Assembly: GCA_951802195.1 (NCBI GenBank)
Contig: OX637623.1
Location: 682,001 to 746,000, forward strand
From: Tausonia pullulans
Taxonomy: Eukaryota > Basidiomycota > Tremellomycetes > Cystofilobasidiales > Mrakiaceae
Length of the DNA: 64,000 bases
Direction: 5' to 3'
This document shows positions 50,169 to 54,321 of this stretch, piece by piece. A program made the position numbers and the translations under genes. Each line of letters starts with the position of its first letter. Positions within the stretch are counted from its first letter, which is position 1. Below the pieces are notes generated by a model. It did not search any database. It was not told the DNA's origin and saw only the letters and a list, made by a program, of their open reading frames with translations.

Positions 50169-53100
50169 CTAGCCGGAGGTGTTGACCTTGTCCCTAAGGG
50201 TGCTAATCCACTGGCTATAGCTCGGCGTCTTGTCAAACCGGTCCTCGACGAGCGCCGAGAGCGCCCACTGTCGGAGGGCGGGCTCGCCGTCCTCCTTGAC
50301 GATGTAAAGGTGTGCCCGGTAGGGACTTCGACGCCACTCGCGCGTCTTGCCAATGACTGCGTTGACACGTTGGGAGAACGAGTTGTCAAGGAGCGGAAGG
50401 GTGGCCTAAGCGAAACAAGGGAATAATTTGGATCAGTATTCATGGTCCCGCCGGCGGGAGGTAGATGGGATGAGAGAGAAAGAGAGCCTTTACCTTTCCA
50501 CCCGGGAGCTCGGCGTACGACGGCAGGTCAAACACGTCCATGATGAGCTGGGGGACGGCATCCCGGCCGACCCAAAGGAAGATGTTTTGGCCGTCCTCGA
50601 TGAGGAAGAGACCATGCCGCTCGAGCCGCTCGCTCGTGAGGTTCATCGTCTCGGGCATTATGACGCCCTCCGGACCGATGGTGCCGCACTGGTGAGGGGA
50701 TGGGGAAGATCTGGTCAGGACTCAAGCTTTCAAGCAAGGGCAGAGCGAGCGTGCATGACCCACCTCGTCTGGCATCGTGTGAAGCGCGTAAAACCTCGGG
50801 TGTAGGTAAGGCACAAGGAGCTGCGAGGGTAGCGTTGTGAGAAGAGCTTGTGCGTAGGCGCGCATATCGGGCGGGATCTGCGAGCTCTCGCGAATGCCGA
50901 CGTGCTTAAGGAGGCCAAGGAGGAGGAGCGGGAGGTGTCGGAGATTGTCCGGGATCGCGAGCTGGGTGCTCGCGCCCGAGCCTCCGGCCTGGGTGGCCGC
51001 CTTGAAGGCCACAAGGTAGTCGACGAGTTGCTTGGTAATAAACTCGCGGGCATCCTCGAGCTTGGACTGCATCGTCTTCTCGACGGCCTTGTTGGCGAGG
51101 AGCGTGGCGATCGCGACCTGGTCCGCCGACGCGAACAGGTTGGTGATATTGTCTGTCGTCGGGAGAGCGAGAGTAATAACCCGGATGCGGCGCTCGCCGA
51201 AACAGGTCGTGTGGAGGACTCCGGCCTGGAGGACAACCCAGGGAGCAGTGATGTTGTCCTCGAGCTCGACTTCGATCGCGTATGACTGGTCAATGGGGAC
51301 CGCGGGGAGCGAGAGGAGGTCCGTTGACCGGATGAAGAAGTTGCCGTGGAACGCCTTCATTCGGAGACCGCGCGATGCACGGACACGGATGACGGCCTCG
51401 AGTCCGATCTTGGACGCGAGGACCTCGCCGAACTCGTGGGCGAACTTGATGGCGTCCTCGGACCGGGCGGCGTTGAACGAAGGGTAATAGTAGGTCTGAC
51501 CTCCGGTGTATCGGGGGAGACAGGAGAGCGTCGCAATGTCCGTGTACTGGCCCGAGAAGAGGAACATGTCGACCGAAACCTGGGCGCGTGAGCAGTCGAT
51601 CGAGAACGTCTTGTAGAACGGCCCGGCAGCCTGGAGGAGTGTCGACTCCTTGGCGGTTCCTAGAACCTTCGGATCCTCGCGGTTCTTGAGGGCACCCGGT
51701 CCGAGCGTCGGAAGTGTCGATGTAAGGGCGATGATCTTGCCGCCGATGCTTGACTGGGGGAGACAGGCTCGATCAAAAGCGAGTCACAACGGAGAGAGAG
51801 ATTATGACGCACGACGAGCTTATAGGCTGCCTGAAGACCAGCTCCGAGGGCACTGCCCTGGACGAAGGTGTCCTTGAACATGTCGCTGAGCCGGCCGAGG
51901 AGGTTGTCGAGACCGGCGCGGCACTCGTTGATGTTGATGAGCAGGTCCGAGGGCTTGGGGAGGAAGATGTCGTCGATGTCCGAGACAACGAGCATCGTCG
52001 GGTCCGTCGTGCCGGGCTGAAATGTGGGAGAGGGAAAGTACGCGTCTAAGTCTCGACGCAACGGGTAACATGAAACGTGCAAGAGCAGGGACGAACGGGA
52101 ATGCAGAAGAAGTGAAGCGAAATGTCGACGGCAATGATGGCGACTTTTGTCCGGCCGTCCTCGTTCGGGAGGCGGTCGAGCGACTCGAGAATTGTGCGCG
52201 CAGCTGTGGCGACCATGCCTGGAGGAGAGGAGCGCGAATCAGTGACGGCGCGTACATAAACCGCGTGTGAGAGGGCAGGCACGCACCAGTCTTGACCGCG
52301 GCCTCGGAGACGTCAATGACAAAAACGTAGCACGGTGGCTGAGGGGGCCGGACCATGTACTCGGTCGGGGCGACAAACTCGACAACAGAGCAGTTGAGCT
52401 CGTCGCGCTTCCAGCGGTCAGCGGGCTGGTTTGTGACCTGGTTCCAGTCGAACAGTTGGGGGACCTCGTTCGAGAGGTTGCACATCGGGCACTTCCAGCG
52501 GTTGCCGCCCTCGATGAAGGTTACAAAGGGGTGGATGTAGGCACGGCATCGGCGGCAGCGGGCGATGACTGTGTCTTTGACGACAGGAATGGCCTCCTGA
52601 CGAGAGGTAGAGCGCTGTGGTCAGCCATCGTCAAACGTGTTGACCTGGAGGGCACGACAACTCACATCACCCTCCTTGAGCGAGCGGAAGGGGCTAAGCA
52701 CGAGGGCGAGCGGGAGCTTTGATTTATTGAGGAGCGAGTTGGTGCGCGGAACCGCATTGAGCGTCGAGCGCATGTAGCTGTGGTCCGGGATCGTCGCAGG
52801 ATTCTGGGAGAGGGCCGCCTGTGGGTTGATGATACGCAAGTGGGAGGTGGACAGGTCAACCGGAGAGGAATGTAGACCTCACGCGAGCGAGCGTCATGAC
52901 CTGGAGCGCGCCACTCACGTTCGATGGAAGGCGGACGGCAGGAGGGGGCGCCTCGAGCTGCTGGACATCCGGCTGGAGGCCAACGAGGTTCGTGACATGT
53001 ATCGGATACTGGCAGGGCGAGAAGGGGGTGAATGAAAGCAGTCAGCCAGTCGGGCTCGATGCGTGAATGCGTGGATGCGTGGATGCGCGAATGCAAGGGA

Positions 53101-54321
53101 AGAAGGCTCGAGCGGGACATGACACGTCTTGCATGGGCCAGTTGGAGTCAGGCCAGACTCCTCAACTTCATCTGAGCCATTCAAACTTGGACAAGGAGAC
53201 GACAGGGGACACTGGGCCGAATTTGGACCTCCAAGGCGCCAGAAGCGAGGCCAGCGAAGCACAAGATGACTCTCGTCCGATCTTCGACACGCGAGTTGGG
53301 AGCTTGCTCCGGCCGACGGTCTCCCCCGTTGACCGACGGCCCTTAGTCTCTGATGACTCTTCTCCTTCGCGATAAGAGAGCCCAATTTTGCCCCACTATA
53401 ACACTCGAGCCATGCACAGGCAGCACTTGCTTCTCTCGTGCTGGCAAATGCGTGTTCTACCGGCTCCTCGCGAACTCGCTTCGCCCCATCTCGCTCGCGA
53501 CTCACGTTGAGGTTCTCGCCTCCAAGGGCCATGCTGCCCATCTGGTTCGAGAGTGCGCCCATGGCGTTGACCTGACCCTGGACGGGCGCCTGGCCGTACT
53601 CAGCCCCACCGACGTAGCCGCCCTGGGCGGTGCCGTAGGTTCCCGATCCGTACGCGGGTTGCTGCTGGCCGGCCGCGACCTTAGGGTCCTGGCCGTAGCC
53701 TGGGGTGAAGAGCTGCTCTTGGGCGTACCCTCCTGCGGCAACGCTCGGGTCGTATCCTCCTGCGGCTGGGGCCGGGGCCGAGTCGACATAGGCGGCCTGG
53801 GCGGCAGCGTACTGCCTGCGACGGGGGTTGCCGCCCGAAGGGGCGACAGGCGCTTGGGCAGGGGGAGGCGATGTGGCGAGCGAGGCAGGGTCAAAGGCGG
53901 GCGGGTCCCACTGCGACTGGCCTTCGGGGCCTTGGGTTAGGGAGGGAGGAAGACAGAAAGGTGGTAAGGGAGAAGGAGGAGAGAGAGAAAGCAGCAGCGT
54001 CAGAGAGGCGAGGACCGAGGAAGGGAGAGCAAGCCAGCAAAGCACGATCGGAGGGCGATGCCGAGAGAATAGAGCGGTCAGGGTACTCACTGACGTAGAA
54101 GGGCGTGCCTGCCTCATCCCTATAGCGCAGATGTGCGTGAGAGGCGAGGGAGAGAGGCAAGACATCAGTGCTAGTCCGGCAGAGGAGAGGAGGAACGAGA
54201 ACGAGCAAGAAGCGCACGTTCTTGCTCGTCCCTCCCCTCCCGTGATGGTTCATGAGGCATAGCAAAGAGTGTATCTGACGAACCACTGCTCAGACCATCC
54301 TGGCGGGAGTTGGGTGGACAT
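50169..54321 (-). CDS. SEC24: COPII cargo-adaptor subunit Sec24 with an N-terminal WW domain
   Basis: The COPII inner-coat subunit that captures cargo at ER exit sites with Sec23. Exons 54321-54284, 54119-54091 and 53930-53506 splice in phase (492 nt, 164 codons). They encode a WW-like domain at residues 5-33: [29 protein letters not shown] (W9, Y21, W30, P33). It is followed in the same exon by a Pro/Gln/Gly/Tyr-rich Sec24 N-terminus. After a 497-nt intron come the core landmarks: [20 protein letters not shown], the zinc finger (CRRCR...CPMC), [93 protein letters not shown] and [16 protein letters not shown]. The end is LRDKVNTSG. Core length is normal. The WW domain is not part of the Sec24 I know from yeast or animals. 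The first intron uses GTTCGT. Confidence 0.93.

What the first reader, a model, noticed from the sequence alone, without database searches (positions are those of the whole stretch)
53506..54321. Sec24 with an N-terminal WW domain
Three in-phase exons place a WW-like domain (W9, Y21, W30, P33; LPPGW...QWDPP) at the very start of an otherwise complete Sec24. Half of the domain is in the same exon as the typical Sec24 N-terminus, so this is a fusion within one reading frame rather than a neighbouring gene. Yeast and animal Sec24 proteins known to me have only a disordered N-terminus. A WW domain on the cargo adaptor of COPII would give a new way to recruit PPxY proteins (cargo, Sec31/Sec16-like scaffolds, or arrestins) to ER exit sites. 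The loop before W30 is one residue short, so binding must be tested.
Basis: partly seen in the sequence, partly recalled or inferred. Interest (0 to 1): 0.78.

Follow-up and report, generated by a model that had tools for sequence, protein, structure and literature searches.

The report
Basidiomycete Sec24 with WW domain
The gene encodes Sec24, the protein that picks cargo for export from the endoplasmic reticulum, with a small proline-reading type of domain (WW) at its very start; the add-on is real and was found in every basidiomycete class sampled, but in none of the other named fungi sampled.

Summary
Observation confirmed. Three short exons (54321-54284, 54119-54091, 53930-53506, minus strand) open an 11-exon, 930-aa SEC24 gene. 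Residues 5-33 match Pfam WW above its cut-off (29.4 bits in the whole protein, 36.0 on the first 61 aa; cut-off 26.9). It is not a private fusion: 114 of the 120 listed homologs carry LPxGW in the first 60 residues. Rusts, Mixia, Microbotryomycetes, smuts, Dacrymycetes, Tremellomycetes and Agaricomycetes have it; none of 90 Sec24s named as Mucoromycota or allies nor two Pezizales does. On a tree of 39 chosen Sec24 cores it needs one change, support 100/97, so it was probably gained on the basidiomycete stem. The PPxY reading is not supported: loop 2 lacks the group I histidine, and Sec31 and Sec16 open frames hold no PPxY but many PPP motifs in basic stretches. Best mechanism, inferred: an acidic, tethered, group II/III-like WW adding a weak contact to those proline-rich regions. 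In most relatives one or both groove aromatics are changed, so binding must be tested.

The parts
54284..54321 (-). SEC24 exon 1: start codon and first strand of the WW domain (residues 1-13; last codon split)
54091..54119 (-). SEC24 exon 2: middle of the WW domain (about residues 13-23)
   Evidence: GT-AG borders
53506..53930 (-). SEC24 exon 3: rest of WW (to P33), linker with SPPP, conserved RRRQYAAAQ block, disordered N-terminus
50169..54321 (-). whole SEC24 gene, 11 exons, 930 aa
50169..53008 (-). exons 4-11: zinc finger, trunk, beta-sandwich, helical and gelsolin domains of Sec24

Best explanation
The window encodes the COPII cargo adaptor Sec24 of a yeast close to Phaffia and Mrakia (Cystofilobasidiales), whose N-terminus carries a WW domain probably gained once on the basidiomycete stem. 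The WW (residues 5-33) sits ahead of a disordered tether of about 120 residues and the Sec24 core. In this species it keeps aromatics at the two groove positions (F20, W30), has an FE65-length second loop, lacks the PPxY-selecting His, and is acidic (net -5). Most likely it is a group II/III-like, low-affinity reader of basic polyproline stretches (PPP, PPPPR) in Sec31 and in the N-terminal disordered part of Sec16, adding one more multivalent contact between inner coat, outer coat and ER-exit-site scaffold. Shown here: gene structure, domain identity, distribution, conservation, candidate ligand motifs in the same genome. Inferred: binding, partners, effect on coat assembly. The confidence given is for the mechanism; for the domain and its clade-wide presence it is about 0.95.
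For: WW over the Pfam cut-off. Same N-terminal motif in 114 of 120 listed homologs. One change on the tree, 100/97. WW columns 0.74 majority identity with no gaps against 0.32 in the linker after it, 55 rows. AlphaFold model of the Mrakia relative: block pLDDT 73, 85, 87 over residues 1-30 with strands 10-13 and 19-22 and a two-residue strand or bridge at 28-29. FE65 WW 2ho2 aligns without a gap. Sec31 open frame: 26 overlapping PPP and 0 PPxY, 10 PP-then-R/K motifs; proline-rich regions net +20 (Sec31, 396 aa) and +14 (Sec16, 297 aa). In yeast the Sec31 disordered region binds Sec23 by PPP motifs and positive charge, and Sec16's upstream disordered region interacts with Sec24 (PMC7594496, passages and section 9; PMC8016994, passages).
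Against: No binding or RNA data. The place of Pin1 Tyr23 is Leu in 115 of 140 relatives of the common length, and the second Trp is Tyr/Phe in Microbotryomycetes and Leu/Pro in five rusts, so a classical proline groove is not kept across the clade. The strong acidity is not general: mean net charge -1.83 over 155 relatives, 34 of them at 0 or above. PPP motifs occur in yeast Sec31 and Sec16 too, where Sec24 has no WW, so they are not specific; [quoted passage not shown] The FE65 ligand preference is recalled, not tested.
Confidence: 0.48

Rival explanations
1. WW fold reused as a structural coat element: it docks through a conserved outer (convex) aromatic patch and does not read proline peptides.
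For: An extra Trp at the Pin1 Met15 place is present in 140 of 140 relatives of the common length class, Phe/Tyr at 24 in 140 of 140 and Tyr at 22 in 93 of 140, while the groove place 23 is Leu in 115 of 140 and the second Trp is changed in Microbotryomycetes and rusts.
Against: Placing these residues on the convex side rests on recalled Pin1 geometry; no coordinates were inspected. In this species both groove positions are aromatic, and its two nearest kin lack the extra Trp. The second Trp is kept in 119 of 140.
Confidence: 0.25
2. Intramolecular switch: the WW binds Sec24's own [ST]PPP motif in the linker, perhaps regulated by phosphorylation, and masks or exposes it, for example for the Sec23 gelsolin domain.
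For: [ST]PPP lies in 66 of 114 linkers of 50 aa or less; shuffled linkers give a mean of 4.7 and at most 14; 60 of the 70 linkers with PPP have it 7-10 residues before the RRQY block. The window has TSPPPAQ. Autoinhibition of a WW protein is the title subject of PMC11079029 (search listing only).
Against: Shuffles ignore kinship, and most rows are Agaricomycetes. 44 of 114 linkers lack PPP, those of Phaffia and Mrakia among them. No structure of the pair.
Confidence: 0.15
3. PPxY-recruiting WW: brings PPxY cargo, arrestins or Sec31/Sec16 to exit sites.
For: The domain is a WW over the cut-off; other PPxY proteins of the genome were not searched.
Against: No loop-2 His (Pro24), unlike five of seven other WW segments recovered from the genome; 0 PPxY in Sec31 and Sec16 open frames.
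Confidence: 0.08
4. Gene-model artefact: two separate genes or a chance frame.
For: The first two exons are tiny (38 and 29 nt) and no RNA was seen.
Against: Same N-terminus in 155 of 262 fetched proteins by motif, the rest being mostly non-basidiomycete; the domain is better conserved than the linker; all ten introns are GT-AG.
Confidence: 0.02

Closest known systems
Sec24 of S. cerevisiae (PDB 1m2v, 4bzi) and human Sec24A-C (PDB 2nut, 3eh1, 3eh2)
   Different: No WW: yeast Sec24 is not in the list of ten WW proteins (PMC1557994, passages); matched yeast chains start at residue 133. Absence from human Sec24 is recalled, not tested
FE65 (APBB1) WW domain, PDB 2ho2
   Same: Same length between the two Trp, gapless alignment, E 0.00039
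   Different: Different host protein; FE65 has Tyr-Trp where this WW has Phe-Tyr
Group I WW domains of NEDD4-type ligases (e.g. NEDD4L, PDB 9gik)
   Same: LPPGW and QW..P framework; best PDB match, E 1.1e-8 summed over its several WW domains
   Different: One more residue in loop 2 and a His there; here Pro24
Smy2p of yeast, a GYF-domain protein that acts with Sec23/Sec24
   Same: Proline-reading module attached to the COPII inner coat (PMC2239301, passages)
   Different: GYF domain on a separate protein; the GYF domain is not what binds Sec23/24 there
Sec23 gelsolin-domain PPP-binding site
   Same: Inner-coat reader of PPP motifs of TANGO1, cTAGE5, Sec31 (PMC7594496, passages)
   Different: Different fold and subunit; the WW would be a second site

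Membership tests
WW domain (PF00397) | Profile score above the curated cut-off | tested here: met
   29.4 bits whole protein, 36.0 on first 61 aa, cut-off 26.9
WW domain (PF00397) | Two Trp about 20-23 residues apart and a closing Pro | tested here: met
   W9, W30 (21 apart), P33
WW domain (PF00397) | Three-stranded antiparallel sheet | tested here: inconclusive
   Only on the Mrakia relative P0002, in a model of mean pLDDT 64.5: strands 10-13 and 19-22 plus a two-residue strand or bridge at 28-29, block pLDDT 73-87; the fold search did not test this part
Group I WW (PPxY reader) | His in loop 2 (recalled as the mark of group I) | tested here: not met
   Pro24 at that place; no His among the commonest residues there in 140 relatives
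Group I WW (PPxY reader) | PPxY in the proposed partners Sec31 and Sec16 | tested here: not met
   0 in the open frames searched, which are not spliced proteins
Group II/III WW (polyproline reader) | Binds polyproline | not testable with these tools
   Needs a binding assay; the gapless match to FE65 WW is only a resemblance
Sec24 | Zinc finger, trunk, beta-sandwich, helical, gelsolin domains in order | tested here: met
Sec24 | Is Sec24 and not Sec23 | tested here: met
   120 listed homologs at 60-72% identity, many named Sec24 or COPII subunit; SEC23 is a separate gene in the window. The tree holds no Sec23
Sec24 | Binds Sec23 and cargo signals | not tested
   no assay

The most novel reading that the evidence does not exclude
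A WW fold fused to the COPII cargo adaptor at the origin of Basidiomycota has lost the classical proline groove in most of the phylum and is conserved instead through a nearly invariant extra Trp and neighbouring aromatics: a proline-reading domain turned into a clade-specific coat-assembly part, with the Cystofilobasidiales (this window) keeping or regaining an aromatic groove.
Probability: 0.25. Interest if true: 0.7.

Novelty: new variant of a known kind. Interest (0 to 1): 0.5.

Why it matters
COPII is studied mainly in yeast and mammals. A domain fixed in the essential cargo adaptor throughout the basidiomycete classes sampled would mean that mushrooms, smuts, rusts and basidiomycete yeasts assemble or regulate ER exit with an extra part. 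It looks like a single early gain and is testable: one deletion and one binding assay decide what it does. The domain is already flagged by automatic annotation; no paper discussing it was recognised in the library searches.

Tried and rejected
PPxY idea: not supported for Sec31/Sec16; other PPxY proteins of the genome were not searched. Artefact: made very unlikely by conservation. Defective short loop: FE65 has the same length. Group IV (phospho-Ser/Pro, Pin1-like) was not pursued: the loop-1 places are acidic here (D14, E15), against Pin1 as recalled. A Pfam SRA1 search meant to find Sec31 rang neither in the genome nor in the controls, so Sec31 was located with a yeast query. The fold search on the full model says nothing about the WW part.

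Literature, what was seen: PMC7594496 passages and section 9; passages of PMC8016994, PMC2239301, PMC1557994, PMC5309816; passages of PMC8350409, PMC6299087 and PMC2648738, checked because they hold the words WW domain and Sec24 together, none about a fusion; PMC11079029 and all others in search listings only. Listings were capped or short: 11 of 11 papers, 25 of 35, 12 of 24, 0 papers; (Sec24, Cryptococcus neoformans, COPII), 11 of 11. Most listed papers were not opened.

Results that weaken the reading: 40 of 120 listed homologs have no precomputed PF00397 (counted by eye), though 34 of those 40 still show LPxGW. In a Pfam scan of nine relatives, P0082 and P0231 (Microbotryomycetes) gave no WW match at E up to 1; Phenoliferia 17.5, Phaffia 23.9 and Puccinia triticina 25.3 bits were under the cut-off of 26.9; Austropuccinia 31.1 and Mixia 33.9 were over it. 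P0113, P0208, P0248 and P0249 look like basidiomycete Sec24s (by name, identity or RRQY block) without the WW; late starts, fragments or true losses were not told apart. Two Pezizales and the yeast literature are the only Ascomycota; animals, plants, chytrids, Wallemia and Malassezia were not sampled (one hit is labelled a fern and lacks the WW).

The mechanism odds went from 0.50 to 0.48 because the general acidity is weaker than first written.

Full report
WHAT IS THERE. The minus strand 54321-50169 carries an 11-exon gene for a 930-aa Sec24. Exons 1-3 are 38, 29 and 425 nt and join in phase; all ten introns are GT-AG, and the less usual donor GTTCGT of intron 1 recurs in intron 7. The protein begins [33 protein letters not shown]. 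Pfam gives WW at residues 5-33 (8.1e-7, 29.4 bits, cut-off 26.9; 36.0 bits on the first 61 residues) and then zinc finger, trunk, beta-sandwich, helical and gelsolin domains. By eye, upstream frames on the plus strand from about 55.2 kb look like a divergent EF-hand gene; I saw no other gene to own the WW exons, but no gene finder was run.

WHOSE GENE. The closest named relatives are Phaffia (70%) and Mrakia (67%), both Cystofilobasidiales. On the tree the window protein pairs with Phaffia at 92/74, inside a 100/100 group of the three.

HOW WIDESPREAD. Of the 120 listed homologs (1073 passed the threshold), 80 carry precomputed PF00397 (counted by eye) and 114 have LPxGW within the first 60 residues (115 of 121 with the window protein). 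The six without are P0064 (a fused model), P0072 and P0104 (models that start inside the domain and still hold its second half), P0085 and P0116 (models that start in the linker) and P0113 (unnamed). A search with a Microbotryomycete Sec24 listed 120 proteins, 34 of them new, among them rusts, Mixia and Calocera: 31 of 34 match the motif pattern, one more (P0232) has LPSGW, P0248 and P0249 lack it. A search with a made-up early-diverging-fungus query listed 120 of 2797, 108 of them new: 10 have the WW, nine with basidiomycete names and one unnamed; 98 do not. Of these, some bear names of Mucoromycota and allies (phylum from my knowledge), two are Pezizales, one is labelled a fern and five are unnamed, of which P0208 has a basidiomycete-like RRQYAAGQTQAYY block and is a 486-aa fragment or short model. 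Six of the 98 matched only a looser LPxGF-type pattern without the rest of a WW; some of the 98 are partial models. Together 155 of 262 fetched proteins match the pattern. On a tree of 39 Sec24 cores that I chose (25 with WW, 12 Mucoromycota and allies, two Pezizales; WW region left out) presence of the WW needs one change, support 100/97, 0 of 500 label shuffles as low; the root is a midpoint. Sampling outside Basidiomycota is Mucoromycota-heavy, so 'gained on the basidiomycete stem' is the best reading, not proof.

IS IT KEPT BY SELECTION. In a 55-row alignment the WW columns average 0.74 majority identity with no gaps, the linker after it 0.32 with 0.29 gaps, the KRRQY block 0.86, the core segments 0.76-0.91. 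The AlphaFold model of the Mrakia protein (mean pLDDT 64.5) has strands at 10-13 and 19-22 and a two-residue strand or bridge at 28-29 with block pLDDT 73, 85, 87, then a stretch under 50 from 36 to 154. So the domain looks like an ordered bead on a flexible tether.

WHAT KIND OF WW. Counting back from the second Trp, the 140 relatives of the common length (Trp to Trp 23) have Leu 115, Val 13, Ala 4, Ile 4, Phe 2, Met 1, Tyr 1 at the place of Pin1 Tyr23; Phe/Tyr 140 of 140 at 24; Trp 140 of 140 at 15; and the second Trp as W 119, Y 19, F 1, A 1. By name 20 of the 21 changed ones are Microbotryomycetes; the A is the unnamed P0252. The other 15 of 155: six of spacing 22 (three W, three Y), three of spacing 21 (Phaffia, Mrakia and an odd Sporobolomyces model), and six that the script could not parse, five rusts with Leu or Pro in place of the Trp and one odd model. 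Window, Phaffia and Mrakia share the shorter domain with aromatic groove positions (Phe/Tyr and Trp). The WW lacks the loop-2 His; of seven other WW segments recovered from this genome five have VDH or IDH there, two (L005, L010) do not, and three matched loci gave no segment. It is acidic here (net -5), less so in the family (mean -1.83 over 155, range -5 to +2). The solved FE65 WW has the same length and aligns without a gap. Pin1 numbering and the meaning of these residues are recalled.

PARTNERS. A Sec31 gene (contig 15, by a yeast query, best piece 49% identity) and a Sec16 gene (contig 19, TPR_Sec16 profile, 7.7e-35) were located in the same genome. Only open frames were scanned, not spliced proteins, so counts are approximate. 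Sec31: 0 PPxY, 26 overlapping PPP; Sec16 frames: 0 PPxY, 14, 5 and 0 PPP. Their proline-rich parts, cut at ends that I chose, are basic: +20 over 396 aa and +14 over 297 aa. Sec24 itself has one PPxY at 332-335, inside the trunk domain, so probably not exposed (inference). In yeast, PPP motifs and positive charge of the Sec31 disordered region bind Sec23, PPP contacts alone are dispensable for assembly but add stability, and Sec16's upstream disordered region interacts with Sec24 (PMC7594496; PMC8016994). An acidic polyproline reader on Sec24 fits that network. This is inference; PPP in Sec31 is not specific to basidiomycetes.

A SECOND FEATURE. The linker after the WW often holds [ST]PPP: 66 of 114 linkers of 50 aa or less (119 proteins had both landmarks, six WW proteins had no RRQY landmark), shuffles 4.7 on average and 14 at most; 60 of the 70 with PPP have it 7-10 residues before the RRQY block. 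Shuffles do not correct for kinship. It could be an intramolecular ligand or a Sec23-binding PPP.

VERDICT. Observation confirmed; private fusion no; clade-wide domain gain likely; PPxY reading unsupported; polyproline coat contact most likely but untested. The architecture is visible in automatic annotation, yet no paper on it was recognised in the searches named.

Noticed in passing
window 17953..about 14800, minus strand: SEC23, the partner of Sec24, lies in the same window and on the same strand, about 32 kb from SEC24. Whether the linkage is conserved was not tested.
   Followed up: partly
window 53506-53930 (linker after the WW): [ST]PPP motif between the WW and the RRQY block in many basidiomycete Sec24s.
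   Followed up: partly
relatives P0253-P0256, P0258 (rusts) and Microbotryomycetes such as P0082, P0105, P0229-P0231: Second WW Trp replaced by Leu/Pro in the five rusts and by Tyr/Phe in Microbotryomycetes while the rest of the domain stays.
   Followed up: partly
G000 contig 10, 131390-131964 (L013, L017, L023): A third Sec23/Sec24-trunk gene, perhaps an Lst1/Sfb3-type paralog; the name is a guess from memory.
   Followed up: no
window from about 55.2 kb, plus strand: Divergent gene with EF-hand-like frames, NCS-1/frequenin-like by eye.
   Followed up: no
P0064 (Ceratobasidium sp. 423), P0073 (Trametes cinnabarina), P0244 (Sporobolomyces): Odd public gene models: a fusion with a PF03151 protein, an insertion inside the WW, and a WW with a changed middle; probably annotation errors.
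   Followed up: no
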